Positions 11,671-62,742 of a stretch of DNA of 64,000 nt are shown piece by piece. A program made the translations under genes and the position numbers. How positions within the stretch are numbered: position 1 is the first letter of the stretch; the number at the start of each line of letters is the position of its first letter. Source of the stretch: Cognatundibacterium squillarum (lineage in GTDB: Bacteria; Pseudomonadota; Gammaproteobacteria; Burkholderiales; Burkholderiaceae_D); NCBI RefSeq assembly GCF_014652435.1, contig NZ_BMYU01000001.1:620001-684000 (forward strand), read 5' to 3'. The notes beneath the pieces are model-generated. The model searched no databases, was not told the DNA's origin, and saw only the letters and a list, made by a program, of their open reading frames with translations.

Positions 11671-11752
11671 ATGCGGATTCTGGCATAGCGATCCGGCGGT
11701 CGTCGGCAGAAAGTCCGGGACTCACAAAAATGCAAATGACGATATTTGCACA
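11671..11752 (-). repeat. Dispersed type-A element, copy 1
   Basis: 82-bp element in a convergent gap of 432 bp that has no supported gene. The 17-bp end motifs (minus-strand TGTGCAAATATCGTCAT at 11736-11752, TATGCCAGAATCCGCAT at 11671-11687) start 65 bp apart around the core containing CTTTCTGCCGACGACCGCC. Short open frames across it are shared by the other copies and are not genes. Confidence 0.85.
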
Positions 11753-11764
11753 ATACTTACTGAG

Positions 11765-11773
11765 CCCCCCCCC
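11765..11773. repeat. Nine-base poly-C tract
   Basis: A run of nine C between element copy 1 and the end of the phosphatase gene. It is outside any coding region, so a phase-variable gene is not indicated; sequencing error is possible. Confidence 0.6.
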
Positions 11774-11815
11774 GTTAGCCGGAGCTTTACTAAAGTCGAA
11801 AAGATCAGCGCCGGA

Positions 11816-11842
11816 TGCAGTGCAGCAGACCGCTGCACTGCA
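11816..11842 (-). terminator. Strong hairpin after the LpxH-like gene
   Basis: TGCAGTGCAGC and GCTGCACTGCA form a perfect 11-bp stem around 5 bases, six bases past the stop of the minus-strand gene. A U-run is lacking. Confidence 0.5.
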
Positions 11843-11847
11843 CCACA

Positions 11848-12711
11848 TCAGGCAATAATGCCTTCACTGACAGGCGCTGCTGCACCGTTTTCCGGATCTT
11901 TCGATGCATGCTGATACACCACATCGTGCCAGGTCACGATACTCAGCTGCCCTGCCGCATCTTCCACCAGTGCCGACAAGCTTTCTACCCAGTCACCGTC
12001 GTTGCAATACAGAATGCCGTTGATATCGCGGATTTCAGGCTTATGAATATGACCACAAATTACACCATGCAAACCTTTACGGCGCGCTTCTTCGGCTAAA
12101 GCATCTTCAAAACGGGTAATGTAGCTGACCGCATTTTTGACTTTCAGCTTCAGATATTGTGACAGTGACCAGTAAGGCAGTCCGGCGCGGGCGCGCCAGA
12201 TGTTGTAGATCTGATTGAATTTCAGAATCATGGTGTACAGGCTGTCCCCCAGATAGGCCAGCCATTTGGCGCAGGCAATCACGCCGTCGAAACGGTCGCC
12301 GTGCAACACCAGCAATCGGCGGCCATCGGCGGTGGTGTGTACCAGTTCATCACGAATCTGGATACCGCCAAAGTTCAGATCAATAAACTGGCGCACCGAT
12401 TCATCATGGTTGCCGGGAACGAAAATCACATTCGTCCCCTTCTTCGCCTTTTTCAGCACCGTCTGAATGATGTTGTTGTGAGTCTGATCCCAGTACCAGC
12501 GGCGTTTCAGCTGCCAGCCATCGATGATGTCGCCGACCAGATACAGGGTTTCGGATTCAGTGGCCTTTAAAAATTCCAGCAAACGGGCCGCCTGACAACC
12601 GGTGGTACCGAGATGCAGGTCAGAAATCCAGATGGTGCGGAACTTCTGCACATCTTTCTTACTGACCTTATGCAGTTTTTTCCCGAGGAAGCGGTCGGCC
12701 TGCATCAGCAT
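11848..12711 (-). CDS. LpxH-like UDP-2,3-diacylglucosamine diphosphatase / metallophosphoesterase
   Basis: At 287 residues this calcineurin-type phosphoesterase has the five metal-binding motifs in order: SDLHLG, VGDIIDGW, PGNHDE, LHGDRFD and GHIHKPE. The WxxxxRWYWDQTHNN insert is typical of the LpxH-related group annotated as UDP-2,3-diacylglucosamine diphosphatase, which makes lipid X for lipid A. It is longer than E. coli LpxH (240 residues), so it may be a paralogue acting on another lipid precursor. The ATG directly follows the stop of the OlsB-like gene, with that gene's end (GGTGAG) as ribosome-binding site, implying a lipid-related operon. Confidence 0.75.
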   Translation of the reverse strand: MLMQADRFLGKKLHKVSKKDVQKFRTIWISDLHLGTTGCQAARLLEFLKATESETLYLVGDIIDGWQLKRRWYWDQTHNNIIQTVLKKAKKGTNVIFVPGNHDESVRQFIDLNFGGIQIRDELVHTTADGRRLLVLHGDRFDGVIACAKWLAYLGDSLYTMILKFNQIYNIWRARAGLPYWSLSQYLKLKVKNAVSYITRFEDALAEEARRKGLHGVICGHIHKPEIRDINGILYCNDGDWVESLSALVEDAAGQLSIVTWHDVVYQHASKDPENGAAAPVSEGIIA

Positions 12712-13473
12712 TTACTCACCGGTACCGTAATGACGGGCATAACGGGCATCCAGATTCGCCAGCGGCAGCATCACAAACAGATCAGCGCTGTGGAAATCAG
12801 GATCCCAGGCCGGTTCACCGCAAATCCACGCGCCGGCACGCAGATAGCCTTTCAGCAGCGGCGGAATACGGGCATCACTGGCCTGCGCTTCAATGCCATC
12901 CAGCGGGAAAGGCAGCAAAGGACTGACGCGGTATTCCAGCGGGCACATTTCTTTTTCTGTCAGACTGCGATAAATCGCTGCCGCATTCACACCGCCATCG
13001 GTCAGACTGATGCTGGCGCAACCAATCAGGTGCGAGCAGCGTTCACGGCGCATGTAAGCCGCAATACCGGCCCACAGCATCATAATCACCGCACCGCTGC
13101 GGTAGTCCGGATGGATACAGGCGCGGCCTGCTTCTGCAATGCCGGAACGCAGATTCGCCAGACGAGTTAAATCGAATTCTGTTTCGGAATAATAACGACC
13201 AATCGTGCGTGCCGCATTCGGGCCGAGGATACGGTAGGTGCCGACGACTTTCAGGGTTTTGCTGTCGCGCACCAGTAAGTGATCGCAATGTTCATCGAAC
13301 TCATCCTGATCCAGACCTTCCGCATTTGCCAGCGCAGACAAGCCCATACTTTCGATAAATACTTTGTAACGCAGGCGCTGCACTTCCCGGATTTCTTCCG
13401 GTGTGGTTGCCAGACTGAGACTCAGTTTGGAAAAACTCGGATTTGCATCGGCCGGGATCGTAAGTAATCGCAT
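12712..13473 (-). CDS. OlsB-like ornithine-acyl-ACP N-acyltransferase (GNAT fold)
   Basis: A 253-residue acyltransferase of the family once labelled hemolysin-like. The core LRYKVFIESMG, ARTIGRYYSETEFDLTRL and EAGRACIHPDYRSGAVIMMLW matches OlsB-type enzymes that attach 3-hydroxyacyl chains to ornithine, the first step of phosphorus-free ornithine lipid. No olsA-like second acyltransferase is adjacent. Three 7-mers at exact 11-bp steps, resembling Pho boxes, lie 70 to 98 bp upstream, which fits induction under phosphate starvation. Function is inferred from family and context; a siderophore or homoserine-lactone-like acyl transfer is less likely. Confidence 0.72.
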   Translation of the reverse strand: MRLLTIPADANPSFSKLSLSLATTPEEIREVQRLRYKVFIESMGLSALANAEGLDQDEFDEHCDHLLVRDSKTLKVVGTYRILGPNAARTIGRYYSETEFDLTRLANLRSGIAEAGRACIHPDYRSGAVIMMLWAGIAAYMRRERCSHLIGCASISLTDGGVNAAAIYRSLTEKEMCPLEYRVSPLLPFPLDGIEAQASDARIPPLLKGYLRAGAWICGEPAWDPDFHSADLFVMLPLANLDARYARHYGTGE

Positions 13474-13542
13474 GAATTGTCCTTTTGCTCATAAATGTGC
13501 TTGACTGACAGGCACAGATTAATGAGGGATTACTTCAGGACG

Positions 13543-13571
13543 ATGACGTTTTGATTGCAGTTTAATGACAG
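13543..13571 (-). promoter_or_regulatory. Putative Pho box upstream of the olsB-like gene
   Basis: On the minus strand CTGTCAT (13565-13571), CTGCAAT (13554-13560) and ACGTCAT (13543-13549) are spaced exactly 11 bp apart with A/T-rich 4-base spacers (TAAA, CAAA). The first is an exact PhoB half-site; the other two match 5 of 7. Confidence 0.65.
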
Positions 13572-13734
13572 GCAAAAAATACAACAAATGCTCAGGAAAT
13601 AAGCAATCAGCAAGGAAGAAACGTGATGAAAACGACAGCAGAAAATGCGGACGGGACTAACAGGAATGCAGCAGCGCAGGCACACAGGGTGTCTGCGCTG
13701 ATCAACAGAAAATGTAAAGACAGTAACGCGCTGT

Positions 13735-14118
13735 TTAATCGCGGTCTTTTTTCGGGCGGCCAGCCTTCAGGACAGGCAGTTCCGCGATCAGTTTTTTCAG
13801 TGCCGGCGTTTCTGTCTGACTCAGCAGCAGCAAACCAATGCGCAGCAGCTGACTTTTCTTCACTTCAATACCGGCTTTCAGGCAGGCTTTTTTGGTTGCG
13901 CCCAGAATCGCGTACTCATCTTCGGGCATAGTGAAACTGTCACGCACCAGCCTGGTTTTTGCCGGTTTAGCCGGTGCTTTGGCGACTTTCAGTCTGACCG
14001 GCGCTTTTGCCGCAACTTTGGCGACTTCCGCTTTCTTCACTTCGTCTTTCACCGTTGCAGTCTTCTGTCTGCTGACAGCGCGTACTGTCGTCGTATCCCG
14101 TTTTGTCGTAACCGCCAT
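13735..14118 (-). CDS. Basic alanine/lysine-rich protein, possible DNA-binding
   Basis: 127 residues from the ATG at 14118, chosen for GAGGA 6 bp upstream; the frame is open to 14172. The N-terminal half is rich in A, K and V (KVAAKAPVRLKVAKAPAKPAKTR), like histone H1-type tails. The C-terminal half (DSFTMPEDEYAILGATKKACLKAGIEVKKSQLLRIGLLLL) is a compact segment like those of conserved beta-proteobacterial small proteins and ends in the basic GRPKKDRD. A nucleoid-associated or ribbon-helix-helix-like role is plausible but unproven. Confidence 0.6.
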   Translation of the reverse strand: MAVTTKRDTTTVRAVSRQKTATVKDEVKKAEVAKVAAKAPVRLKVAKAPAKPAKTRLVRDSFTMPEDEYAILGATKKACLKAGIEVKKSQLLRIGLLLLSQTETPALKKLIAELPVLKAGRPKKDRD

Positions 14119-14324
14119 AAGGTCCTCAGTCAAAATAAGCAATTCGTTAATCGATATAAACCATTCCAGCATCCGGTATCAGCATACCTGCATGGCATGA
14201 CAACTTTGTTACCGGAGAGTAGCAAATTCATCAGAAAAAAGCTTCAGAGTCACACTCTAACCGGCGGATATATCAAGGTGAGATGCGCAATGGACGAATT
14301 TCCGAATTTGCTTCAGCGCAGGCA

Positions 14325-14342
14325 CTGTCATAATCACGCCTT
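14325..14342 (+). promoter_or_regulatory. Possible Pho half-site before the second pstS
   Basis: CTGTCAT (14325-14331) is an exact PhoB half-site, but the unit 11 bp later (ACGCCTT) is a poor match. It lies 52 bp before the start at 14383. Weak evidence on its own. Confidence 0.3.
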
Positions 14343-14382
14343 TTTCCGCAGCGTTTGTCAGCGGGCCGTCGAAAGCCGTTAT

Positions 14383-15429
14383 ATGTTAACAAAGTTGTTC
14401 AGTTCTCTCTGTGTCAGCGCAATCTGTGTATTCAGTAACGCAGCAATGGCACAGGATATTCAGGGCGCAGGTTCTTCCGCCGCCGCTCCGCTGTATCAGT
14501 TGTGGGCCGATGCATTCGGTAAAGCCAAAGGCAGCAAAATTGCGTATCAGGCCAGCGGTTCTTCGTCCGGCATTCGCCAGATTAAAGAAGCTAAAACTGA
14601 TTTCGGTGCGAGCGATGTTGCTTTACCCGCTTCCGAACTCAAACGCCATGCCTTGCTGCAGTTTCCGTCTGCCATTTCCGGTGTGGCCGTTGTCTATCAT
14701 CTGCCCGGCATCAAATCTCAGGAATTGCGTCTGACCGGTGATTTATTAGCGCAGATTTTTTCCGGAAAAATCACGCAATGGAATGATGCACGCCTGCAAT
14801 CAGCCAATCCGCAATTACGTTTGCCAGCGAAAGCCATTGAAGTACTGGTGCGTGAAGATGGCTCGGGCACGACCTGGAATTTCAGCGATTATCTGAGCAA
14901 AGTCAGCACTGGCTGGAAAGCCGAAACCGGCCGCGATTTCGTATTGCGCTGGCAACCGCATTTCCGCGCCACCAAAGGCAGCAGCGGTGTTGCCGCAGCG
15001 CTCAGAAAAACGCCGTTCAGTATCAGCTATATCGATTACAACTATGTGCTGCAGGAAAAACTGGACGCTGCACAGTTACAGAATCAGGATGGCAAATTCG
15101 TCAGCCCCGGTGGAGAAAGTTTTGCCGCCGCGCTGAACAACAGTCGCTGGAAAGCCGAAGGCGGATTTGATGAAACACTGACCAATCAGCCGGGTGCGAA
15201 AAGCTGGCCGATTACCATGGGTACCTTTGTGATTCTGCCGCAGGTGACTGCCAGTCCGGCGCAAACCCGCACTGCATTGCAGTTTTTTACGTGGGCGTTT
15301 ATGAATGGCGACCGTCTGGTCGGTGCTGCAGACTTTGTGCGCTTACCGGATGCGATACAGGCACGTATTTTCCGCGAACTGAACAGTGTGACAACCCGTG
15401 ACGGCAAACCACTGAGCTTTTATCAGTAA
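14383..15429 (+). CDS. Second, orphan PstS-like phosphate-binding protein
   Basis: The ATG at 14383 opens a signal peptide (LFSSLCVSAICVFSNAAMAQ), so I start there rather than at 14197. About 348 residues. The mature start DIQGAGSSAAAPLYQLWADAF, GSSSGIRQIKEAKTDFGASD and VREDGSGTTWNFSDYLSKV follow the PstS fold with its phosphate-contact loops. No permease genes are adjacent, so it probably feeds PstCAB or acts as a sensor or scavenger. It diverges clearly from the pstS at 7470 and is not a recent copy. Confidence 0.85.
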   Translation: MLTKLFSSLCVSAICVFSNAAMAQDIQGAGSSAAAPLYQLWADAFGKAKGSKIAYQASGSSSGIRQIKEAKTDFGASDVALPASELKRHALLQFPSAISGVAVVYHLPGIKSQELRLTGDLLAQIFSGKITQWNDARLQSANPQLRLPAKAIEVLVREDGSGTTWNFSDYLSKVSTGWKAETGRDFVLRWQPHFRATKGSSGVAAALRKTPFSISYIDYNYVLQEKLDAAQLQNQDGKFVSPGGESFAAALNNSRWKAEGGFDETLTNQPGAKSWPITMGTFVILPQVTASPAQTRTALQFFTWAFMNGDRLVGAADFVRLPDAIQARIFRELNSVTTRDGKPLSFYQ

Positions 15430-15470
15430 CAGGTTTACGATTATTGTCAGCGACATCTCGCAGCAAATAA

Positions 15471-15502
15471 AAAAAGCGCAGAACCACCATTCTGCGCTTT
15501 TT
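15471..15502. terminator. Bidirectional terminator
   Basis: AAAAAGCGCAGAA and TTCTGCGCTTTTT form a 13-bp stem around CCACCA between convergent genes. It gives a U-run in both directions. Confidence 0.9.
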
Positions 15503-15534
15503 GTTTTTCGGTCATTCACATATTCAGATCAGCA

Positions 15535-16380
15535 TCACTCCGCCGGTGCCTGCATCCATTGCTGCGGCGTGCAGCGATCCCAGTTCATGCCCGCAGCGTA
15601 AAACAGTGCTGCGCGGTTTTTCGATAAGAAGTTAAAAGATGGCTGCTGAATCACCTTCACCTGCCCTGCGCTGACAAAAAATTCGACGGTATATTTCGGA
15701 TACGCCATCACCAGACCACCCGGTACAAACGATACGTCTTCAGGACGGATAATCGCCGCCAGCTGGATCTCGGTCGCACCGGTAACCACCGCCTTCAGGC
15801 GCTGAGAATTTTTCTTATACGCTTCACGCTCTGCCATATTGTCACGGGCAGAACTGAGCTTACGGATAATATTCAGCGGATTGGTGCCGACACTGACCAG
15901 CGACTCCAGATCAGACAAGGAAGGATCGCGTGCCACTTCGACAATGCTGCGCCAGGTTGGTTTTTCCGGCAGCGTGATACTCAGCTCCGTCACTGCCTCA
16001 GTACGTGCCGCCAGTGATTTCATCCATGCATCTGCATCATCGCCCCAGTGGCGGCGGGTAGCGGTTGCGTAGCCGCGGCAACTGTAAAAAGCAGCCGCAT
16101 CGCGGCGGCTGAGTTTCCCACTGAGCTTGCCATCCTCAAAAATCAGCGCGCCTGGCTCACCTTCGGTCAGCGCGAGGTAATGCCAGACCTTGCCCTGGCT
16201 GTCTTTGACTTCAAAACGCTCCATAACGGCTTCAGGCGGGAAATCAGCGACGACCTTACGGGCTTCCTGCGTCGCACTCACCTGTACCGTCTGGGCCTTT
16301 GCCAGAACGTTCTGCGCGCACAGCAAAGGCAGCACCAGAGCGCAACAGCGCAGCGCCGGTCTGATCTGATGGTGTTTCAT
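15535..16380 (-). CDS. Exported protein of unknown function
   Basis: 281 residues with a signal peptide (LRCCALVLPLLCAQNVLAKA). The mature part is mixed alpha/beta, with VWHYLALTEGEPGALIFEDGKLSG in the first third, a YSCRGYATATRRHWG segment, and a hydrophobic strand region near the end (GGLVMAYPKYTVEFFVSAGQVKVI). There are two Cys in the mature part (in YSCRGY and DRCTPQQ). I do not recognise the family. It shares a bidirectional terminator with the convergent second pstS. Confidence 0.65.
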   Translation of the reverse strand: MKHHQIRPALRCCALVLPLLCAQNVLAKAQTVQVSATQEARKVVADFPPEAVMERFEVKDSQGKVWHYLALTEGEPGALIFEDGKLSGKLSRRDAAAFYSCRGYATATRRHWGDDADAWMKSLAARTEAVTELSITLPEKPTWRSIVEVARDPSLSDLESLVSVGTNPLNIIRKLSSARDNMAEREAYKKNSQRLKAVVTGATEIQLAAIIRPEDVSFVPGGLVMAYPKYTVEFFVSAGQVKVIQQPSFNFLSKNRAALFYAAGMNWDRCTPQQWMQAPAE

Positions 16381-16608
16381 ACTTCAGCTCCGTAACAAAA
16401 AGGCATACAAAATAACAAACTGTTGCCATGCCCGCCAGAAAATTCTGATCAGACACGAATAAAACCGTGAAAACGTTTTACATGATTTAACATAATTTTC
16501 CGTCAACACCGCCTGTGCCAGCCCTTACTGCATAAGGGTTTCCCACGAAGTCGCAAAAATTTTATACAATTGCGCCCTTTCGGATTTCTGCAATTTACCA
16601 GACAAAGC

Positions 16609-16637
16609 TTGTCAGGCAAGGCGAAGACTAGGATAAT
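16609..16637 (+). promoter_or_regulatory. Sigma-70 promoter of a small RNA or rpoD leader
   Basis: TTGTCA (16609-16614) and GATAAT (16632-16637) are each 5 of 6 to consensus with exactly 17 bp between them. Transcription should start near 16645. No open reading frame follows before the terminator at 16703-16729. Confidence 0.65.
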
Positions 16638-16644
16638 CTCGCCC

Positions 16645-16729
16645 TCGCGCAAAAATCCTGTGCGTATAACCGAGTAAGATGATTTCGCTTTTTTGTCAGC
16701 GTAGCCCGCTAATTTTCAGCGGGCTTTTT
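16645..16729 (+). ncRNA. Candidate small RNA of about 85 nt upstream of rpoD
   Basis: The span runs from the predicted start of the promoter at 16609-16637 to an intrinsic terminator: AGCCCGCT-AATTTTC-AGCGGGCT followed by TTTTC (16703-16729). It has no coding potential, and inner hairpin potential (GCGCA with TGTGC). I do not recognise a named family. It could also be a prematurely terminated rpoD leader. The rest of the 450-bp gap before rpoD shows no other feature. Confidence 0.45.
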
Positions 16730-16830
16730 CGTCCGTGTCTGCCGTTGATCTGTCACTTTGATCGTCTGCAGCATCTCGCTATTGCCAAGCTCACTTGACT
16801 AGCCCTTTGTTGCCGTACTGAACTTGTTAC

Positions 16831-19785
16831 ATGAAAAACAGCTTAACTGACTCATCGACTGCCAACGTAAAAACAGGCTCCACGCTCACGCTGGGTAAAA
16901 AGACCCTGCAGCTGAACCGTGGCGCAGCCCCTGCAGCTGCTGCGACACCTGCCCAAGCTGAAGTCACTGCACCTGAAACGGTTGCCGGTGCTGATGCATC
17001 CGGCGCCGTACCTGTCATTACCCGCCGCAAAGTCCGCATTCAGAATGTGGCAACTGCAGCGGTCGCTGCACCAAAAGCCTGGACAGCAGAAGAAATCGAA
17101 GCAATGGCGCAGATGCCGGAAAGTGAACTTGCTTCCGCCGGTCTGCAAATTCCTGCTGAGCCTGTAACACCTGAAATCATTGCGGAAACTGCGACACCGG
17201 AAACGGATGCCGCTGCTGCAGTGATGGCTGCCATCGCCGCACCTGCTGCACCGGCCGAAGCAGAACCGGTCAAACCGGAAGTGAAAGCGGAAATCCGTGC
17301 CGACCTGCGTGCGGAACTGCATACCCTGAACGGCAATGACCTGCAAAAACCGCGTGCCGCCGTGATTCGTAAGACACTGGCGAAACCGGCTAAAAAATTA
17401 TTGCTGGCTGATCAGAAGCAGGACATCAGCAATGTTGCCGGCAGCACCATTAAGAAAGAAGCGCGCATCAGTAATTCGCGCTTTGCGGAACCCTCTCCGG
17501 TCAAAACACTGAAACCTGTCAGCGCAGCACCGGCAAGAACCGTCGTGCGCGCAGCGGCGCCTGCAGTGCCTGCAACACCGGTCACACCTGCGCCGGTTGC
17601 ACGCTTTGAACAGCCTGCGATCATTGCACCTGTCAGTGCACCGGCACCGGTTGCTGTTGCACCTGTGATGCCAGCCGCACCTGTGCGTCCTGCAGCTGTT
17701 GCAGCAGCGCCGGCAACACCGGCAGCACCGGCGAAACCTGTCGTCGCCGCATTCAGCGATGCCGATGCGGCAGCAATTCTGACACCGGTAAAAGATGTAA
17801 AACGTGGCCGTAAAGCCGTGGATGCGGATGCCGAAGGCGATGAAATCGCCATGCTGAATGCCGCCGAATCTGCAGAGATCAAACTCGCAGCGCGTGCACG
17901 CACCCGCAAGAAAGATACACCGGAAGCAGAAGCAGCGCGTCTGGAACACTATCGCAAGCAATTAGCCAAACTGATACGTCTGGGCAAAGACCGTACTTAC
18001 CTGACTCACGCTGAAATCAATGATCATCTGCCGGAAGAAGTGGCAGATGCTGAAATGATTCAGGAAGTCATCAGCACCCTGAACGATATGGGTATTGCTG
18101 TGTACGATCAGGCACCGGACGCAGCCATGATGCTGCTGACCGATACCGTGGTCAGCAATGTCAGTGATGATGAAGCGGAAACCGTGGCAGCGTCTGCGCT
18201 GGCCACAGTCGATTCCGACTTCGGCCGCACGACCGACCCGGTTCGTATGTATATGCGTGAAATGGGCGGCGTGGAATTGCTGACACGCAGCGGCGAAATC
18301 GAAATCGCCAAGCGTATCGAAGAAGGCCTGAAAGACATGGTGCAGGCAATTTCTGCCTGCCCGGTCACGATTTCTGAAATTCTGGCAATCGCCGACCGTA
18401 TCGAAAAAGATGAAGTCCTCGCCGATGATGTGGTCGATGGCTTTATTGCTGCGGAAGACAATGAAAACGCCAGCCTGATGCTGAACGACGGCGATGATCT
18501 GGATGAAGAAGTCGGCGGAGACGATGACAATGTATCCGACAGCGTCGGGGGCATCAGCGATGAGCAACTGGCACAGCTGAAAGCAACGGCACTGCAAAAA
18601 CTGCGTTTTGTCGCCAGCAACTTTGAAAAACTCAAAGAAGCGCGTGCAATGGACGGTTATCAGTCTGCAGCCTATCAGCAGGCGCAGCGTGCGATTACCG
18701 CAGAACTGCAAACCATTCGCTTTACCACCAAGACAGCAGAAAAACTGTGCGACACCCTGCGCAAGCAGATGAAGGAATTGCGCACGGCAGAAAAGCAATT
18801 GATGGATCTGGTGGTGAACCGCTGCGCGATGCCGCGTGAGTATTTCATCAGTATGATTAAAGTACACGCAACCAATCCTGACTGGTTTGAACAGGAAATG
18901 GCATCCGGCAAACCATATGCCGCTGCCCTGTCCCGTCATATCCACGCGGTACGCGAACAGCAGCGCCGTCTGATTGAGCTGGAAAACCGCGTTGAACTGC
19001 CGCTCAGTGATCTGCGTGACATTAACCGTCAGATGATTGCCGGTGAAAAACGTTCTGCAGAAGCCAAACAGGCGATGACTGAGGCCAATCTGCGTCTGGT
19101 CATTTCGATTGCGAAAAAATACGTGAACCGTGGTCTGCAATTCCTGGATCTGATTCAGGAAGGCAATATCGGCCTGCTGAAAGCGGTTGATAAATTTGAA
19201 TACCGCCGCGGCTACAAATTCTCTACCTATGCAACATGGTGGATTCGTCAGGCAATCGCCCGTGCGATTGCAGATCAGGCACGCACGATCCGCGTTCCGG
19301 TGCATATGATTGAAACCATCAATAAGATGAACCGCGTTCGCCGTCAGTTGCTGCAATCCACCGGTCTGGAACCTGAACCGGTTGCGATCGCAGAGAAAAT
19401 GGGCTTACCGGAATCCAAAGTCCGCGAAATCCTGAAGATTTCCAAAGAACCGGTATCGCTGGACGTCCCAATCGGTGATGATGGCGATTCCGCGCTGAGC
19501 GACTTTATCGAAGACGGCAACACCATGTCGCCTATGCACGCAGCAATGCAGGCATCGGTTAACGCCAAGCTGAAAGAAGCACTGGATGGCCTGAGCCCGC
19601 GTGAAGCGAAAGTTTTGCGCATGCGTTTCGGTCTGGAAACATCCACCGAGTTCACGCTGGAAGAAGTTGGCAAACAGTTTGAAGTAACGCGCGAACGTAT
19701 TCGTCAGATCGAAGCGAAAGCGATGAAGAAACTGCGTACACCGGGCAAAGCAGAACAATTGCGCAGCCTGATGGAAAACGAATAA
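16831..19785 (+). CDS. rpoD: Primary sigma factor RpoD with a long N-terminal extension
   Basis: The housekeeping sigma-70, 984 residues against 613 in E. coli. Residues from about 365 are the normal protein: region 1.1 ([19 protein letters not shown]), 1.2 ([18 protein letters not shown]), an acidic non-conserved insert, region 2 ([39 protein letters not shown]), region 3, and region 4 ([19 protein letters not shown]). The first 365 or so residues are extra: short basic/beta motifs ([42 protein letters not shown]) and a proline/alanine-rich stretch at about 230-310. No in-frame start lies upstream, since a stop sits 10 bp before the ATG, and no ribosome-binding site is clear. An in-frame start near the core would need an internal Met. 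Confidence 0.95.
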
Positions 19786-19965: not shown

Positions 19966-20047
19966 TATGCAAAAATCCGCATGTGTGATTTCCGGAGCGC
20001 CAGAGTTTCTGCCGACGACAAGCCGGATGCTATGCAGAACCCCGCAT
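19966..20047 (+). repeat. Dispersed type-A element, copy 2 (diverged)
   Basis: The 17-bp ends TATGCAAAAATCCGCAT (19966) and TATGCAGAACCCCGCAT (20031) start 65 bp apart. The core keeps GTTTCTGCCGACGACAAGCCGG but is more diverged than the others. It lies between convergent rpoD and the kinase gene; I see no gene in the 413-bp gap. Confidence 0.75.
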
Positions 20048-20150
20048 TTAGGCTGAAAAATGGCCTTTGACAGCACTTTTGACCGTCACAACGGACTTTA
20101 CTCATCAGACCCAGTTTAAAACGATCTTCAGCACAGAGACTGAAAAAACA

Positions 20151-28842: not shown

Positions 28843-28897
28843 GATGTGAACACGGGCGACGGATCACCTGCCCGTGCGCTTGCCCTTACCCGCAAAA

Positions 28898-28929
28898 ACA
28901 AAACCGGCCTTCGTCAGGGCCGGTTTTGT
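28898..28929 (+). terminator. Terminator of the M14 peptidase gene
   Basis: ACAAAACCGGCC and GGCCGGTTTTGT pair over 12 bp, followed by TTTTA. A degenerate second copy sits at 30670-30710 as part of a duplication of about 200 bp. Confidence 0.88.
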
Positions 28930-28982
28930 TTTATACCTACTGGAACTTTGCCCGCTATCCGGCACAACAAACAGCCATGCAT

Positions 28983-29064
28983 TGTGCAGAACTCCGCATC
29001 ACCCGGTTTCGGAGAGCCAGACTTTCTGCCGACGACCGTCGGATCGCTGTGCTGAACACCGCAT
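28983..29064 (+). repeat. Dispersed type-A element, copy 3 (left half of a duplication)
   Basis: Ends TGTGCAGAACTCCGCAT (28983) and TGTGCTGAACACCGCAT (29048) are 65 bp apart. With the terminator before it and the GGGGCATTTTCAGGGC tail after it, about 28890-29100 is closely matched by 30667-30880. No gene is supported in the 439-bp gap. Confidence 0.9.
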
Positions 29065-29281
29065 TTGGGGCATTTTCAGGGCTTTACGGCGCTGTTTCAG
29101 GGAAGTACGCGAGCAGCTAATGAAGCAGGCTGCCCGATGGATACCGAGTTTGTTCCGGATTGCAATAAATCGTTCGTTCGGATGCTGCCGGTGAAAGCAT
29201 CATTAAACTGTTACCAAAACTTTCAAGCCAAGGCGTACCAGCCCGCCTTGCGCATGAGAGCATCCAAATATCAGGCACAGT

Positions 29282-30568: not shown

Positions 30569-30759
30569 TCACCGACCTTTCCTCGGCAATTAATTCACCA
30601 TCCGGTGAATATTGTGAATTTCAGATAGAGAAGTCCGGCTGACTGATCAGTCGCCGCTCCACCAGCCAGCAAACAAAAAACCGGCCTTCGTCAAAGCCGG
30701 CTTTGTTTTTTATTCGCCGGAACTTTGCCCGCTATCCCGTACAATCATCAGGCGCACAT

Positions 30760-30841
30760 TGTGCAGAACTCCGCATCACCCTGTTTCGGAGAGCCAGACT
30801 TTCTGCCGACGACCGCCGGATCGCTGTGCTGAACACCGCAT
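30760..30841 (+). repeat. Dispersed type-A element, copy 4 (right half of a duplication)
   Basis: Ends TGTGCAGAACTCCGCAT (30760) and TGTGCTGAACACCGCAT (30825), 65 bp apart and near-identical to copy 3. The copy of the M14 terminator at 30670-30710 has lost part of its stem (only CCGGC/GCCGG remains). The 380-bp gap holds no supported gene; a 61-codon open frame over the element is an artefact. Confidence 0.9.
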
Positions 30842-30948
30842 TTGGGGCATTTTCAGGGCTTTACTGGGCTGTCTGAGGCTTGCGCCGCGACAGCACGGAC
30901 AGCCGGATACCGTCCGTGGTTGCGCTGCCCTGCCCGCTTCGTAAAGAT

Positions 30949-43018: not shown

Positions 43019-43094
43019 ATGGATCACACAGACTTTCGCTGGTCAGAACCAAGTCAGCTGCGGAACTGCCAGTTTTTGCTCAAAAATACCCCAA

Positions 43095-43176
43095 ATGCGG
43101 AGTACAGCACAGCAATCCGGCGGTCGTCGGCAGAAAGTCCGGCTCTCTGGAAATGCAAGATGACGATCTTTGCACA
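43095..43176 (-). repeat. Dispersed type-A element, copy 5
   Basis: Minus-strand ends TGTGCAAAGATCGTCAT (43160-43176) and TGTGCTGTACTCCGCAT (43095-43111), 65 bp between starts, with core GCCGGACTTTCTGCCGACG. Same orientation as copy 6; together they bracket 43253-43980. Confidence 0.9.
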
Positions 43177-43980: not shown

Positions 43981-44032
43981 AAAATAGACTCCTTTCCTTA
44001 CACTCAACTGCCACCGCTGACTTTACTAGCAA

Positions 44033-44114
44033 ATGCGGTGTTCAGCACAGCAATCCGGTGATTGTCGGCAGAAAGTCCGGCTCTCCGAAAATGCAAGATG
44101 ACGAACTTTGCACA
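44033..44114 (-). repeat. Dispersed type-A element, copy 6
   Basis: Minus-strand ends TGTGCAAAGTTCGTCAT (44098-44114) and TGTGCTGAACACCGCAT (44033-44049), 65 bp between starts. Very similar to copy 5 across the whole 82 bp. Confidence 0.9.
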
Positions 44115-55947: not shown

Positions 55948-55963
55948 ACCGGAAGGAATGAAC

Positions 55964-56431: not shown

Positions 56432-56482
56432 AACGCCTTGCAGGCATCTGCGCATGCTTCAGGATGCCTGAAAATGCCCGAA

Positions 56483-56564
56483 ATGCGGACTTCTGCATAG
56501 CAATCCGGCGGTCGTCGGCAGAAAGTCCGGGGCTCAGCAAATGCCTGATGCGGATAGCTGCACA
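56483..56564 (-). repeat. Dispersed type-A element, copy 7
   Basis: Minus-strand ends TGTGCAGCTATCCGCAT (56548-56564) and TATGCAGAAGTCCGCAT (56483-56499), 65 bp between starts, core with CCCGGACTTTCTGCCGACG and the tail TTCGGGCATTTTCAGGCA. In a convergent gap. Confidence 0.9.
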
Positions 56565-56588
56565 GACAAGCATCCCGTCAGCTGATAT

Positions 56589-57071: not shown

Positions 57072-57221
57072 AGCATTCCCTGTGAATGCGGGATCATGTT
57101 CAGCGATACCCGCAGATTGAACGAAGGGGATCTGATTTGATTAAAGCTTCCCAGTCAACAAGCTGCACCGCATGCAGTCAAAATCAGATGCCAGATCGAC
57201 CAAAGCGCTTATTCGCCGGCT

Positions 57222-57746: not shown

Positions 57747-57795
57747 GATGTATTCCTCTGAAGAATTTTTATCATGCCATGATATCAACAAACAT

Positions 57796-58233
57796 TCAGT
57801 TTGTCGGTGATTGCATCAGCCAGTAAGCACCATCGTCGCAATCGCCGCTTTCTATCGCAGAGAAACCTTGTGCCATATAAAAATTCACTGCAGGCTGATT
57901 GAGTTGCAGGCATTTTAACTGCCAGGCTTCTTGCTGCCATTGCGGCAATTGCTGCAGTAAAGCTGCACCGATACCGAGTCGCTGATGCGTGGCAGCGACG
58001 TAAAGGTGGTGGATGAATCGTGATTCTGATTGCACAGAAATGAATCCGGCCAGCTGTCCCTGTGCATCTTCGGCCAGCAGGATATTTTCACCGCTGGTTT
58101 GTGCGTCCAGATCTTGCAACTGAAAACGACGGATGTCGGTCCAGTGAAATGCAGCAATCCGGGATTGCAGAAATAAACGGCGCATGGCTGGCCAGTCACT
58201 TTCCTGCGGCGGCCGGATAACAAGTTGCGTCAA
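57796..58233 (-). CDS. GNAT-family N-acetyltransferase
   Basis: 145 residues from a TTG start at 58233, supported by GAGG 7 bp upstream. RFIHHLYVAATHQRLGIGAALLQQL contains the acetyl-CoA pyrophosphate loop (QRLGIGA), and LNQPAVNFYMAQGFSAIE is motif B. Substrate not predictable. Same direction as the kinase-like gene, possible small operon. Confidence 0.8.
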   Translation of the reverse strand: MTQLVIRPPQESDWPAMRRLFLQSRIAAFHWTDIRRFQLQDLDAQTSGENILLAEDAQGQLAGFISVQSESRFIHHLYVAATHQRLGIGAALLQQLPQWQQEAWQLKCLQLNQPAVNFYMAQGFSAIESGDCDDGAYWLMQSPTN

Positions 58234-58282
58234 GTATTTGCCTCACTCATGAAGAAATTAATATTTTCGCAAATTTACGCGC

Positions 58283-58315
58283 AAAAAAAATGCGGAGACT
58301 GGCTCCGCATTTTTT
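58283..58315. terminator. Terminator between ribA and GNAT genes
   Basis: AAAAAATGCGGAG and CTCCGCATTTTTT pair around ACTGG. On the minus strand it directly follows the ribA stop. Confidence 0.92.
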
Positions 58316-58322
58316 ACTGGAT

Positions 58323-58973
58323 TTATTCGTCCGCTTCAGCGCTGAACAAGTGGCCGAGTTTTTCGGCTTTGGTGCTCAGGTAGCGTTCATTGTGCGGGTT
58401 GCGGCCGGCGATGATCGGCACCTGTTCGCTGACGGGCACATTCATGCCCTGCATGGCGGCCAGTTTGCGCGGGTTGTTCGTCATCAGGCGTAAGGACGAG
58501 ATGCCGAGATGGCGTACCATCGGTTCAACCAGCCCGTAATGGCGCAGATCTGCGGCGAAACCCAGCTTCTGATTCGCTTCCACTGTATCAGCGCCCTGAT
58601 CCTGCAAATGATAGGCGCGGACTTTGTTCAGCAAGCCGATACCGCGTCCTTCCTGACGCAGATAAAACAATACGCCGCGGCCTTCATCCGCGATACGCTG
58701 CAGCGCGGTTTCCAGTTGCGGGCCACAGTCGCAGCGCGCGCTGAACAGCGCGTCACCGGTCAGGCATTCGGAATGGATGCGCGACAGCACAGGTTCACCG
58801 TCGGCCACGTTCCCCAGCGTCAGCACCACGTGCTCTTTGCCGGTGGATGTTTCAAAAAACGCATGCATTTGAAATTCTGCCCAGCGGGTGGGCAAGCGGC
58901 AGGATTCAACAAACACCAGATCCTGCGCGCTGTTTGCGGCAGGCGCCACGGTTTCAGACATAGACAAACTCAT
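58323..58973 (-). CDS. ribA: GTP cyclohydrolase II
   Basis: 216 residues. Opens the imidazole ring of GTP, the first step of riboflavin synthesis. Zinc ligands are in [18 protein letters not shown], the catalytic region is [19 protein letters not shown], and ADLRHYG...[14 protein letters not shown] follows. A short polar N-terminal extension precedes the domain. Single gene; no FMN riboswitch is visible upstream. Confidence 0.95.
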
Positions 58974-59199
58974 AATATTTTTCGGATAGCGGCTGCGGGT
59001 TTCCGGAGGCGACAGTCAATGTGGCGGGCAAAGCCGGAAAGCGGCAAAACAGCAAGTATAAACGAGTGCGGATTTTTCAACCGGAAACCACTGCGTTTTC
59101 GAGGAATCTGACCAGTCAGCCAGCATGAAATCCGATTTTATCTGACAGCTTCGCCGCTGACTTTGCGGCGCAACACCGCCTGCGGCAAACAAAGCGCAC

Positions 59200-59302
59200 T
59201 ATGCAGAACGCCGCATTCAGGCAAAAACAGCCCTGCCCGCTGCGCCACTGTTTGCGCCGGTGTCCGCAAAACACCATGAAAATGCTGTGCTGAACCCCGC
59301 AT
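59200..59302 (+). repeat. Dispersed type-B element, copy 8
   Basis: Ends TATGCAGAACGCCGCAT (59200) and TGTGCTGAACCCCGCAT (59286), 86 bp between starts, around a different core (CCCTGCCCGCTGCGCCACTG). The most diverged type-B copy. The 413-bp gap around it has no supported gene. Confidence 0.82.
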
Positions 59303-59386
59303 TCCGGGGTTTTCAGCGCATTTTCAGCGGCCCGCAACTTCCGGGCAAGCTGCGGCAGTCAGGCATTCGCCATAGCCATGGACATG

Positions 59387-61078
59387 CTAGGGTTGCAGGA
59401 CTTTCAGCGCGGCATCGGTCTGCAATTGAAAGAACGCCGAAAACATCGTCAGCGGCTGCCTGCATTGCAGTGTCAGCGTTTGCCCCTGCGCCAGCCCCAG
59501 CCGCACTTCCTGACGATCGCGGCAAGCGCTCACCATGGCTGGCAAGGTGCGGCGGTCACCGCTGTATGGCAAACCTTCAATCTGTGTGACGCTGACTTCG
59601 GCGCGCAAGCGCTGACATTGCGGCAAACCGCTGAGCACGATGCGGTCTTTCTGCGGATACAGATTGCGCATTCCGCTGCAGTCTTCGCGCATCAGTTGCC
59701 CGATCGCGCTGACCAGCATTTCATGCTGCTGCTCAGCGGTCGGTGCTGCGCTGACGGCAAATGGGGATGCGCTCAGCCACTCCTGCCACACCTGCTGCAT
59801 GCGGAAGTCAGAGCGCAGCAATCGCGGCAAATGACGCGGCAGGCAATCCGCCTGATCACCGCATTCCATCATGCCGGCAAAATCGACCGGCATCTTCTGG
59901 GCGGAAGACGTCTGCTGAGCTTGCAGCAAGCGGCGATAGTAAGCATCCAGTCTGGCGTAAGCCTGTCCCGGCGGCGCACTGCCAGTCAGCGCATACACAT
60001 AAGCCGGCAAGCCGCAGACATAACCGATGCGCCCGCCATCGACTTCAGCCCGGCTCAGGCTGCGTAAAGAACGCTGTCCGGCTGTAATCAGGCAACTGGC
60101 CAGCGCATTATCCACATCCGCCGCTGCTTGCTGCGGAGTCAGCCAGCCCTGATGCAGACTGGTCATCCAGCGTAAAAATTCTGCGCCGCCTTCATGGATC
60201 AGGCGCTCTTCCGCGTAGCTGGCAACACCGGTCGGATACATCTGAAACCGGTGACTGAATTCATGCGCCACAAACTGTGATACCGTGCGCTGTCCGCCCT
60301 CGTCCATGGTCAGCGGCCAGTTAAAAAATGCCAGTTGCAGAATATCCTGCGCATTGCCGTTGAAATAAGTCGGCCCGCCGTCCCGGATGGATGCTGCAGC
60401 AACCATCGGCATCTGAAACGGCACCGATGGCAGGCGTTCACGCAAATGCTGCACGGTATGATCAGCCACATCCCGTATCAGCGTCACCGTGGCTGGCGGC
60501 ACATCCGGATCAGCATAAAACGGCGCACCTTCGAAGCGGATTGTCGCGTCCGGCAACAGTAAGGCTGGCTGGCTGTCGCGCTCTTTAACGCCGGTATCCA
60601 GCACCAGTTGCGCAGGCACAGCCTGACCGCCGGTTGCCACCGCAGGCGCATTCAGCACGTAACGGCTGTCACCGCAGGTATTGTCGACCGCATAATTCGA
60701 GGTGTGCAGTAACACCGCCTGCCCCAGCGGTAAAGCGGGCTGGTAGTGGTGATAAATCTTTTTTGTGACCGGCACCGCAAAACGCGCCACACAATTTGCC
60801 GCATTTGCTGCCTGCTTCCACACAATCTGATCGCCTTCCAGCCGTGCGCAATCGTTCAGCGCCTGCCAGCCATCGCGCAAGCCTTCGTCGTCGCGGTTCT
60901 CTTTGCGCAGTCGTAAACGCTGGCAGGCTTTCTGCGGCGCGTAACTGACTTCCAGTTGCTGCGCATCGCGGTAAGTGATCTGTATCGTCAGAGGCGCACC
61001 GGACTGCGCGTACGCAACCGCCTGCCCTGCCAGCAGCACCAGCCCCGCCACCCGGCATTTGCTCCATCCCCAACCCAT
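59387..61078 (-). CDS. Exported putative gluzincin-like metallopeptidase
   Basis: 563 residues with a signal peptide (CRVAGLVLLAGQAVAYAQ). SQFVAHEFSHRFQMYP contains HExxH-type HEFSH, and LIHEGGAEFLRWMTSLH gives a Glu about 25 residues on, the gluzincin pattern. The N-terminal 200 residues are beta-rich with several Cys, possibly a non-catalytic domain. No family recognised beyond this. It lies between element copies 8 and 9. Confidence 0.68.
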   Translation of the reverse strand: MGWGWSKCRVAGLVLLAGQAVAYAQSGAPLTIQITYRDAQQLEVSYAPQKACQRLRLRKENRDDEGLRDGWQALNDCARLEGDQIVWKQAANAANCVARFAVPVTKKIYHHYQPALPLGQAVLLHTSNYAVDNTCGDSRYVLNAPAVATGGQAVPAQLVLDTGVKERDSQPALLLPDATIRFEGAPFYADPDVPPATVTLIRDVADHTVQHLRERLPSVPFQMPMVAAASIRDGGPTYFNGNAQDILQLAFFNWPLTMDEGGQRTVSQFVAHEFSHRFQMYPTGVASYAEERLIHEGGAEFLRWMTSLHQGWLTPQQAAADVDNALASCLITAGQRSLRSLSRAEVDGGRIGYVCGLPAYVYALTGSAPPGQAYARLDAYYRRLLQAQQTSSAQKMPVDFAGMMECGDQADCLPRHLPRLLRSDFRMQQVWQEWLSASPFAVSAAPTAEQQHEMLVSAIGQLMREDCSGMRNLYPQKDRIVLSGLPQCQRLRAEVSVTQIEGLPYSGDRRTLPAMVSACRDRQEVRLGLAQGQTLTLQCRQPLTMFSAFFQLQTDAALKVLQP

Positions 61079-61228
61079 CTCAGCCTCCTGTCACCTGCAG
61101 CGCACGACACGCCGCACATTGGTCAGGAAAGCAGTTTCCGGCAAAACAAGATTGCCTTACAAGCAAATTCCGGTAGTAAGTCCGCTTCCGCTCCGTAGCT
61201 GTGGGACGCACGCGACAAGCACATTCAT

Positions 61229-61332
61229 TATGCAGAACACCGCATTTGTGTAATAACACCCCCTGCCCGCTCAGCCACTGTTTTCGCGGATGTCCTGAAA
61301 AAATGGCGAAAAGGCTGTGCTGAATGCCGCAT
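61229..61332 (+). repeat. Dispersed type-B element, copy 9
   Basis: Ends TATGCAGAACACCGCAT (61229) and TGTGCTGAATGCCGCAT (61316), 87 bp between starts, core with CCCTGCCCGCTCAGCCACTG. It lies in a divergent gap of 631 bp without a supported gene; TTGCAT/ATGCAA (61410-61434) is a loose inverted repeat of unknown role. Confidence 0.88.
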
Positions 61333-61709
61333 TTTGTTCATCTAAGCTGCCTTAAACCATACTGACCACAGCAATGCGCTGGATATGCGCAAATACGAAT
61401 GATAGTTATTTGCATTATGCATAGCAATATGCAAAGTATTTCGTTATCCTTTATTTAACTTCTGCAGCTTTACGGTAAATGGATTTACTCTCGGTCACGA
61501 ATCTTTTCTGCCGATGCTGTTTTTGCGTATGGGAATGTCCGCAGGAACACTGTTTGTCAGATAGATGAACGAATGACAAAGAGATATCTCCGCATGCAAA
61601 CGGGCATTAGATATGCCTTGTCGGAAACATATTTCAGTACTCTGTTCAACCGGAATAATGACCAATTCAGGCAAATGCGATTGGTGCAACCAAGCAAAGT
61701 GAAGATCAT

Positions 61710-62534
61710 ATGAATAAGAAGTTGCCCACCATTTTCCTGGGCTGTGCCATGCTCGGTGGTTTAGCGCTTTTAATACAAACACCGGAAGTGAGAGAGCACA
61801 GAGTTCTGGCACCAGTGCCATATACCAGCCCTGAAATCATTCGCGATAAGCCGGTTCAGCCTGTCGAGAGCTTCCAGCCCAAAAAGAAAGAGGTGTTATT
61901 CACCCCGGCAGAAATCCTGATCATTAACGCCTGGTTGAAGAAACACGGCTATATGTTGTCAGTCTCAGCGAATGGAAAAGTCAGTTTATCCGGCAATCAC
62001 GGTTATCTGCATTACGACCATCACACGCTGCTCAGCCTCGCAAAAAGCGGGGATACGATTGCGGCCAGCACCCTAGGCGCACGCGCCATTTCCTCGGAGC
62101 ATTTGCTGGATAACAGATCTGCTCAGGAAAACAGCGACCTTCAGCATGCATTACTCGATGCAACCGCACGTGGCTTAACAAGCAGCATTGATCAGTTAAT
62201 TATTCTGAAAACGCAGGACTATATCCAGTCTTACGACAGAAAACTAAAAACATTCGACAGCAACCATATTATTGATGCGTATGCCTACCTGAATATACTC
62301 AAATTACGCAGAAGTATCGATACGGAACTTCGCGAATATTCACTGCAAATGGCCAGAAAATTAAGTGCCTCCGAATATGCACTGGCACGACAACGAACGG
62401 CGGAAATTTACGCTTTTTTGTTGCAACGACGGGCTGAGCTTGGCATGGGGCCATTTGAAAATACTGATTCAGCTGAAACTCAGGCATTGCTGCAACGCTT
62501 TTTCCGGGCACTTGAGCAAGGTGAAATTGCGTGA
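61710..62534 (+). CDS. Membrane-anchored protein of unknown function, in a repeat-bounded islet
   Basis: 274 residues. One N-terminal hydrophobic segment (LPTIFLGCAMLGGLALLIQ) anchors or exports it; its Cys is not in a good lipobox. The rest is mostly helical (TPAEILIINAWLKKHGY; QHALLDATARGLTSSIDQLI; LRRSIDTELREYSLQMARKL), like proteins with Sel1-type or other helical repeats. Visibly A/T-richer than its neighbours. Bracketed by element copies 9 and 10. No family recognised. Confidence 0.65.
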   Translation: MNKKLPTIFLGCAMLGGLALLIQTPEVREHRVLAPVPYTSPEIIRDKPVQPVESFQPKKKEVLFTPAEILIINAWLKKHGYMLSVSANGKVSLSGNHGYLHYDHHTLLSLAKSGDTIAASTLGARAISSEHLLDNRSAQENSDLQHALLDATARGLTSSIDQLIILKTQDYIQSYDRKLKTFDSNHIIDAYAYLNILKLRRSIDTELREYSLQMARKLSASEYALARQRTAEIYAFLLQRRAELGMGPFENTDSAETQALLQRFFRALEQGEIA

Positions 62535-62639
62535 GTCAACTTTTCGCAAATACTCGCCTGTCGCAGCGAACAACTGAGTTTTTTTACCCTTGCGTAATCT
62601 GTTCACGTCGCTGAGCACTGAATAAATATCTACCCGATA

Positions 62640-62742
62640 TGTGCAAGATTCCGCATTTGCGCAAAAACACCCCTGCCCGCTCAGCCACTGTTTTCGCGGA
62701 CGTCCTGAAAAAATGGTGAAAAAGCTGTGCTGAATGCCGCAT
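62640..62742 (+). repeat. Dispersed type-B element, copy 10
   Basis: Ends TGTGCAAGATTCCGCAT (62640) and TGTGCTGAATGCCGCAT (62726), 86 bp between starts. Core nearly identical to copy 9 over about 55 bp. In a convergent gap of 353 bp with no supported gene. Confidence 0.9.

What the first reader, a model, noticed from the sequence alone, without database searches (positions are those of the whole stretch)
11671..62742. Ten dispersed intergenic elements built from paired 17-bp direct repeats at fixed spacing
Seen in the sequence: seven type-A elements (11671, 19966, 28983, 30760, 43095, 44033, 56483) are each exactly 82 bp. Their two 17-bp ends (about TRTGCAGAANNCCGCAT) start exactly 65 bp apart even in diverged copies. 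Three type-B elements (59200, 61229, 62640) have the same ends around another core. No feature type explains them, and no transposase or RAYT gene is in the window. They are not plain inverted-repeat MITEs because the ends are direct.
Basis: seen in the sequence. Interest (0 to 1): 0.8.

Follow-up and report, generated by a model that had tools for sequence, protein, structure and literature searches.

The report
Paired-box sites at convergent gene ends
One probably Undibacterium bacterium carries 178 copies (in the 39% of its genome examined) of an 82- or about 103-base DNA element, most often between genes that end facing each other, and each copy is likely a site where DNA is wrapped around a protein, predicted to be gyrase or another DNA-shaping protein.

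Summary
In 1.64 Mb of this genome (39%) there are 178 elements. All 80 same-strand box pairs found lie 65 or 85-87 bp apart; lone strong boxes are rare. The two classes differ by 21 bp, two helical turns. There are no RNA stems, no clear target duplication and no Rfam match. Elements are intergenic and sit in 40% of convergent gaps against 8% of others. Boxes and core are kept while the spacer is weakly conserved. Of 300 genomes drawn from the order only this one matched; three congeners hold a few diverged copies. Best reading (0.4): a host-maintained DNA-wrapping site, functionally like gyrase-binding BIME-2, spread as a repeat. Rivals: a REPIN/MITE-like selfish doublet, or recombination borders of accessory genes (close pairs are co-oriented, 28 of 30; 10 of 11 gene-bearing pairs in the syntenic stretch enclose only genes without a counterpart there). 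No binding protein or transposase was identified. It fails defining tests for REP/REPIN, MITE and integron attC.

The parts
11671..11752 (-). type-A element, 82 bp (left box - core - right box)
11621..11670 (-). phased A/T tail of the 11671 element
   Evidence: family profile
19966..20047 (+). type-A element, 82 bp, between rpoD and an AAA_28 gene (convergent)
20048..20097 (+). tail of the 19966 element
   Evidence: family profile
28983..29064 (+). type-A element, 82 bp; 98% identical to 30760, inside a 213-bp direct repeat
29065..29114 (+). phased tail of the 28983 element
   Evidence: family profile
30760..30841 (+). type-A element, 82 bp
30842..30891 (+). phased tail of the 30760 element
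   Evidence: family profile
43095..43176 (-). type-A element, 82 bp; pairs with 44033 around DNA absent from the orthologous gap of congener G001
43045..43094 (-). tail of the 43095 element
   Evidence: family profile
44033..44114 (-). type-A element, 82 bp
43983..44032 (-). tail of the 44033 element (phasing weak in this copy, by eye)
56483..56564 (-). type-A element, 82 bp
56433..56482 (-). phased tail of the 56483 element
   Evidence: family profile
59200..59302 (+). type-B element, 103 bp; decayed orthologue in U. rugosum (right part gone)
59303..59352 (+). phased tail of the 59200 element
   Evidence: type B, 16 copies
61229..61332 (+). type-B element, 104 bp (box spacing 87); decayed orthologue in U. 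rugosum
61333..61382 (+). tail of the 61229 element (phasing weak in this copy, by eye)
62640..62742 (+). type-B element, 103 bp; together with the gene 61710-62534 absent from the U. rugosum locus
62743..62792 (+). phased tail of the 62640 element
61710..62534 (+). gene (274 aa) enclosed by two same-oriented type-B elements; no match at E<=1e-8 in the 41 other genus genomes searched

Best explanation
These elements are likely sites where about 130-180 bp of DNA is wrapped around a protein, predicted to be DNA gyrase or a gyrase-like DNA-shaping complex, apparently kept by selection at gene ends, where transcription would pile up supercoils. Shown: two imperfectly palindromic 17-bp boxes at helically matched spacings (65 or 86 bp, 21 bp = two turns apart), a conserved core, a tail of A/T blocks every ~10 bp in which TTT and AAA interchange, intergenic placement with a strong preference for convergent gaps, and boxes and core conserved while the spacer between them is weak. 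Inferred: a protein binds the boxes on one helical face, the tail and part of the left flank wrap on it, and the complex takes up or relaxes supercoils between converging transcription units. The element would work like BIME-2, the gyrase-binding repeat of E. coli, but is not a member of that family. It also has a history of copying (near-identical neighbours), by an unknown route.
For: Spacing classes and lengths. Phasing: A/T profile of the 60 bp after type A has power 0.853 (best period 10.25) against a null maximum of 0.061; the 60 bp before it 0.130 (best period 11.25) against 0.015; over -39..142 the best of six tested periods is 10.5; type-B tail 0.804 (9.75) against 0.385. TT/AA interchange at 92-93: 99 TT, 47 AA of 152. 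No long-range covariation among the top column pairs; no Rfam match in the window. Placement: 174 of 178 intergenic by my own gene finder; 81 of 205 convergent gaps hold one against 87 of 1071 other gaps; gaps of 200-500 bp: convergent 55 of 63, divergent 2 of 99 (the element itself lengthens its gap). Constraint: random-pair identity 0.35 in spacer 18-23 (flanks 0.25-0.30) against 0.66-0.88 in 24-65 and 0.73/0.81 in the boxes; 131 of 162 type-A copies score >=55 bits; similarity is nearly uncorrelated between blocks. Two type-B sites intact here are decayed in U. rugosum, and one type-A site is slightly altered at its right end in G001. Spacing after merging pairs <4 kb: CV 0.515 against 0.629, sd 0.055. 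PMC6379681, abstract and passages: the E. coli gyrase motif is 130 bp with 10.75-bp GC phasing in two 47-bp arms, gyrase sites are enriched downstream of highly transcribed operons, and BIME-2 hold gyrase cleavage sites.
Against: No protein was shown to bind; gyrase is inferred from shape and place. The E. coli gyrase motif is symmetrical and degenerate, without fixed boxes; here the phasing is far stronger on one side and its best period varies (9.75, 10.25, 10.5, 11.25 by part). Only this genome has hundreds of copies, odd for a general topology function. Co-orientation of close pairs (28 of 30 below 2 kb; 74 of 115 even beyond 5 kb) and their enclosing genes without a counterpart in G001's stretch (10 of 11 gene-bearing pairs) are not predicted. 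In low-scoring copies the otherwise invariant positions are also hit (35 positions, mean 0.88 kept, minimum 0.56), so some decay exists. Evenness of spacing is only about 2 sd. The comparison of intact and decayed orthologues starts from intact copies here and is biased.
Confidence: 0.4

Rival explanations
1. The elements are REPIN/MITE-like selfish doublets: two palindromic boxes at fixed spacing copied in trans by an unidentified transposase, tolerated mainly at 3' gene ends.
For: Fixed-spacing doublets with conserved ends and a less conserved spacer, extragenic, like REPINs with 71- and 110-bp spacing (passages of PMC3116915). 26 of 158 type-A copies have their closest relative within 5 kb (0.7 expected). 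A 99% identical pair 2.4 kb apart shares only about -5..86; other similar neighbours share -1 to 83-141. Of 202 gaps syntenic with G001, the 11 with an element are longer by a median of 292 bp, the 191 without by -3. One Y1 transposase gene exists (C11:113908).
Against: No clear target duplication signal; no paired-strand covariation or strong hairpin. The Y1 gene has no element within 1.5 kb, and Y1 matches occur in 41 of the 42 genus genomes searched, this one included, while elements are in four. Boxes and core stay conserved while spacers have drifted. The 10 strong box hits outside model matches give no sign of a longer autonomous version in C1+C2 (not each inspected).
Confidence: 0.27
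2. The elements are recombination borders: a recombinase joins circles bearing one element to a chromosomal element, leaving accessory genes between direct copies, like an integron scattered over the genome.
For: Close neighbours (<2 kb) are co-oriented in 28 of 30 cases (p 9e-7). In the stretch syntenic with G001, 12 pairs lie closer than 4 kb; 11 contain predicted genes and 10 of these contain only genes without a counterpart in the 400-kb G001 stretch (16 of 17 genes; background 23% of 304). Arrays such as 879967-gene-gene-881459-gene-882869 occur. In U. rugosum the gene 61710-62534 with element 62640 is missing while a relic of 61229 remains, and the gene has no match in 41 other genus genomes.
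Against: Integron integrase: no hit over the cut-off. attC end triplets in 0 of 152. The DUF3701 integrase beside one element has its best other match (57%) in G014, which had no element hit, and no match at E<=1e-20 in G001, G011 or G062, which have elements. The link to genes lacking a counterpart weakens once gap type is matched: convergent gaps 7 of 18 conserved against 18 of 34 others. 76 of 178 elements have no neighbour within 4 kb. Counterparts elsewhere in G001 were not searched.
Confidence: 0.2
3. The elements are genes or leaders for a structured small RNA, or transcription terminators.
For: 3'-end placement and strict length.
Against: No Rfam match in the window; the top mutual-information pairs are nearly all neighbouring columns, fold z -0.3 and -1.3; terminator-like hairpins are seen by eye on both sides of the element in some convergent gaps.
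Confidence: 0.05

Closest known systems
BIME-2 / REP repeats of E. coli (gyrase-binding)
   Same: many intergenic copies; BIME-2 proposed as strong, transcription-independent gyrase sites (passages of PMC6379681)
   Different: BIMEs are REPs in alternating orientation (abstract of PMC2817692); here two short boxes in direct order around a long core plus a one-sided phased tail
REPINs with RAYT transposases (PMC3116915, PMC2817692; passages)
   Same: doublet of conserved ~16-17-mers at fixed spacing with more than one spacing class, extragenic, less conserved spacer
   Different: REPIN ends are inverted and the spacer pairs with compensatory changes; RAYT genes are reported always flanked by REPs; neither holds here
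E. coli gyrase cleavage motif
   Same: about 130 bp, 10-bp phased A/T-G/C alternation over 47-bp arms
   Different: symmetrical, degenerate, no fixed boxes; period 10.75 against 9.75-11.25 by part here
Integron attC sites and cassette arrays (recalled)
   Same: direct repeats around accessory genes, co-oriented
   Different: no IntI over cut-off, no RYYYAAC/GTTRRRY ends, dispersed rather than one array
pdif modules / Xer sites (recalled)
   Same: box half resembles the XerC arm of the genome's dif-like site (best copy 10 of 11; mean 7.9 against 7.1 shuffled)
   Different: no XerD arm; the 28-bp dif match is barely above shuffled (14.20 against 13.45)

Membership tests
REP/BIME | single palindromic stem-loop unit with complementary changes kept in pairs | tested here: not met
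   boxes only imperfectly palindromic; no compensatory covariation among top pairs
REP/BIME | many intergenic copies | tested here: met
   174 of 178 intergenic; divergent gaps 17 of 205, convergent 81 of 205
REP/BIME | gyrase binds | not testable with these tools
   only the phasing pattern is compatible
REPIN | two REP ends in inverted orientation | tested here: not met
   ends in direct order, though each is palindromic
REPIN | fixed inter-end spacing | tested here: met
   80 of 80 same-strand pairs at 65 or 85-87
REPIN | RAYT gene flanked by the repeats | tested here: not met
   single Y1_Tnp match at C11:113908 with no element within 1.5 kb
MITE | terminal inverted repeats and target-site duplication | tested here: not met
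   no clear duplication signal over 158 copies; ends direct, though each is palindromic
MITE | insertion at sites empty in relatives | tested here: inconclusive
   gaps longer by a median of 292 bp (11 of 202 gaps), more than the element; closest genomes only 77-78% identical in the stretch compared
Integron attC | IntI in the genome | tested here: not met
   TIGR02249: 0 matches over the cut-off (genome 98.66% complete)
Integron attC | RYYYAAC / GTTRRRY ends (recalled) | tested here: not met
   0 of 152
Gyrase strong site | ~130 bp with ~10-11 bp GC phasing | tested here: met
   conserved profile about -1 to 125, phasing far above null in the tail
Gyrase strong site | two periodic arms symmetrical about the centre | tested here: not met
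   power 0.853 after the element against 0.130 before it
Gyrase strong site | cleavage or footprint by gyrase | not testable with these tools
   needs the enzyme
Xer (dif/pdif) site | XerC arm, 6-bp spacer, XerD arm (recalled) | tested here: not met
   XerD arm match 7.36 against 6.93 shuffled
Rfam RNA | match to a curated family | tested here: not met
   0 matches in the window at gathering score

The most novel reading that the evidence does not exclude
A lineage-specific, chromosome-wide system of oriented DNA-wrapping sites: a dedicated box-binding protein phases about 180 bp of DNA into a wrapped complex at gene ends, and co-oriented pairs bracket newly acquired genes as closed topological units, an insulator-like function in a bacterium.
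Probability: 0.2. Interest if true: 0.88.

Novelty: new variant of a known kind. Interest (0 to 1): 0.62.

Why it matters
If the wrapping reading is right, one bacterial species has evolved a second, unrelated answer to the job proposed for BIMEs: fixed, shape-coded sites for supercoil handling at convergent gene ends. The strict helical spacing and the exchangeable TTT/AAA blocks make the idea directly testable with purified gyrase and Topo-Seq. If the recombination reading is right instead, it is a scattered cassette system without an integron integrase. Either way this genome is a good place to ask whether dispersed bacterial repeats are host sites or parasites, because most copies differ in their spacers yet keep boxes and core.

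Tried and rejected
Rfam scan of the window: nothing. Plasmid and phage collections with one element plus flanks: no match. First named-genome scan with a core+box pattern: 0 hits; the second was used with a window protein to name the genus. RNA structure by folding and mutual information: rejected. Target duplication: no clear signal. Replichore polarity and local gene direction as the source of orientation: no relation seen. Synteny with G012:C1: the stretch was not orthologous (1 shared adjacent gap), dropped in favour of G001:C33. Integron integrase, DUF3701 integrase, Y1 transposase: none fits. dif/XerC similarity and attC ends: too weak or absent. Block-recombination signature: similarity is lost between all blocks, so no single crossover point could be named. 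Papers on this family: none found (one search was a REP/gyrase search and a gyrase-motif search); only open-licence PMC papers were searched, and listings were seen, not whole texts.
Full report
OBSERVATION. All ten elements are present as described. The box pattern is far above chance in the window (19 matches, 6.05 expected, 0 of 100 shuffles as many) and in the genome (341 matches at <=1 mismatch, 0 for the reversed pattern). I took contigs C1 and C2 (1.639 of 4.185 Mb) and searched them with models of the window copies. After merging there are 178 elements: 161 matched only by the type-A model, 10 only by type B, 7 by both. That is one per 9.2 kb; about 455 genome-wide is an extrapolation. 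Lengths: 159 of 82 bp, 13 of 103, 4 of 102, one 104, one 81. All 80 same-strand pairs of box hits within 400 bp are spaced 65, 85, 86 or 87 bp. Of 216 box hits with <=1 mismatch, 10 lie outside the model matches; one of them (C1:72608) is the right box of the type-B element at 72522 that the model matched only in part.

ANATOMY (152 full-length type-A copies with flanks). Left box 1-17 (TRTGCA....TC then GT or CG, then CAT); weakly conserved spacer 18-23; core 24-62 with a strongly conserved centre CTTTCTGCCGACGAC; right box 66-82; tail to about 125. In the tail, positions 92-94, 102-104, 112-114 and about 122 are A/T-rich with G/C-rich blocks between. At 92-93, 99 copies have TT and 47 AA, so shape rather than sequence is kept. 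The A/T profile of the 60 bp after the element has power 0.853 at its best period 10.25 (null maximum 0.061); the 60 bp before it 0.130 at 11.25 (null maximum 0.015); over -39..142 the best of six periods tried is 10.5; type B (16 copies) has the tail too, 0.804 at 9.75 against 0.385, while its upstream side is barely above null (0.189 against 0.180). Types A and B differ by 21 bp between boxes, two helical turns. The strongest mutual-information pairs are nearly all neighbouring columns; mean folding z-scores are -0.3 and -1.3 on the two strands. I conclude that this is a DNA-level, not an RNA-level, feature.

PLACE. A gene finder of my own (hexamer scores, not benchmarked) puts 174 of 178 elements between genes, 3 inside predicted genes and 1 at an edge. 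81 of 205 convergent gaps hold one, against 38 of 484, 32 of 382 and 17 of 205 for --, ++ and divergent gaps. Among gaps of 200-500 bp the counts are 55 of 63 convergent, 41 of 149 co-directional and 2 of 99 divergent; the element itself lengthens its gap, so the 40% figure is the fairer one. Orientation follows neither replichore nor, clearly, local gene direction. After merging pairs <4 kb, spacing is a little more even than random (CV 0.515 against 0.629, sd 0.055).

AGE AND CONSTRAINT. Random pairs of copies agree at 0.35 of spacer positions 18-23 (flanks 0.25-0.30), against 0.66-0.88 in blocks of 24-65 and 0.73/0.81 in the boxes. Similarity in one block hardly predicts similarity in another (Mantel z 12-22 within blocks, at most 7.5 between). 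I infer that most copies are old and that boxes and core have been kept. This is not perfect: in the 36 copies scoring below 58 bits, the 35 positions invariant in good copies are kept at 0.88 on average (minimum 0.56), the 22 variable ones at 0.46. Some copies are younger: 26 of 158 have their nearest relative within 5 kb (0.7 expected), and a 99% identical pair shares only about -5..86; other similar neighbours share -1 to between 83 and 141, and 28983/30760 share -94..118. No clear target duplication signal was found.

RELATIVES. The genus is inferred to be Undibacterium: the closest named locus is U. rugosum CY7W at 75% protein identity, with shared flanking blocks. Among 43 genus genomes, this one included, G000 has the family (87 candidates scored, all matched), and G001, G011 and G062 have 5, 3 and 4 matches at E<=0.1, of which 3, 2 and 3 are below 1e-8; the others have none or only E above 0.001. 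Among 300 genomes drawn from the order only G000 matches at E<=1e-4; few congeners were in that draw, and strict filters with 12 candidates per genome were used. No match in plasmid or phage collections. At two type-B sites U. rugosum keeps the left part but has lost the right. At one type-A site G001 has a copy slightly altered at its right end, with a poor tail by eye, while the copy here is intact. In three congeners a pair of diverged copies flanks one or two predicted genes at one locus. I started from intact copies here, so this comparison is biased.

GENES BETWEEN ELEMENTS. In 202 gaps with the same neighbours in G001 (400 kb of contig C33), the 191 without an element differ by a median of -3 bp and the 11 with one by +292 bp, so more DNA than the 82 bp is involved; one of the 11 has a copy at the same place in G001 and differs by only 10 bp. 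Close neighbours are co-oriented: 28 of 30 below 2 kb, 24 of 31 at 2-5 kb, 74 of 115 beyond. In the syntenic region 12 pairs lie closer than 4 kb: one holds no predicted gene, one holds a gene with a counterpart, and 10 hold only genes without a counterpart in the G001 stretch (16 of 17 genes; background 23.4% of 304). Counterparts elsewhere in G001 were not searched, so 'accessory' means this stretch only; ORF 59387-61078, for instance, does have a relative in U. rugosum. Against over-reading: once convergent gaps are compared with convergent gaps, the link is modest (7 of 18 conserved, 18 of 34 others); for non-convergent gaps with >=150 bp net it is 2 of 46 against 10 of 49; 76 of 178 elements have no neighbour within 4 kb. 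In this window, gene 61710-62534 with element 62640 is absent from the U. rugosum locus, and the gene has no match in the 41 other genus genomes searched.

TRANS-ACTING FACTOR. None identified. The integron integrase family has no hit over its cut-off. A 728-aa DUF3701 integrase lies 31 bp from an element beside Rep3, ParA-like and weakly ParB-like genes, but its best other match (57%) is in G014, where no element was found, and there is none at E<=1e-20 in the three congeners that have some. One Y1 transposase match exists; such matches are in 41 of the 42 genus genomes searched, this one included, and no element lies within 1.5 kb of this one. The other 61% of the genome was searched only by patterns and models, not read.

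MECHANISM. I weigh host-maintained wrapping site 0.40, selfish doublet 0.27, recombination border 0.20, RNA or terminator 0.05, other 0.08. The first explains phasing, helical spacing, convergent placement and constraint. It does not explain restriction to one species, co-orientation or the gene-bearing pairs. The gyrase link rests on likeness to the E. coli motif (130 bp, 10.75-bp phasing, 47-bp arms, sites downstream of highly transcribed operons, BIME-2; abstract and passages of PMC6379681; passages of PMC12393610 on deformability). REPIN features are from passages of PMC3116915, RAYT features from passages of PMC2817692. attC, pdif and dif consensus features are recalled.

Noticed in passing
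window 16831-19785: An RpoD-like protein of 984 aa in which region 1.1 starts only at residue 373, so a very long N-terminal extension.
   Followed up: no
G000:C2:17543-24574 (L078, L079): Rep3-type initiator, ParA-like and weakly ParB-like genes and a 728-aa DUF3701 tyrosine recombinase lie together, and C2 has its own GC-skew switch, suggesting a second replicon.
   Followed up: partly
G000:C1:191950: A dif-like 28-mer (3 mismatches to a recalled consensus) close to the GC-skew switch of C1.
   Followed up: partly
window 59387-61078: A 563-aa protein without Pfam or NCBIfam match; only four loci with relatives were found in the named-genome scan, one in U. rugosum.
   Followed up: partly
L149, L150, L151: In three congeners a pair of diverged elements about 1.7-2.0 kb apart flanks predicted genes, in some of which the letters resemble a Hint domain (my reading, not tested); seen at the same locus in all three.
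   Followed up: no
window 28889-29101 and 30666-30878: A 213-bp direct repeat (87%) that includes two elements and extends 94 bp upstream, unlike the other neighbour pairs compared.
   Followed up: partly
G000:C11:113908-114231: A single Y1_Tnp (RAYT-like) match; such matches are in 41 of the 42 genus genomes searched, this one included.
   Followed up: partly
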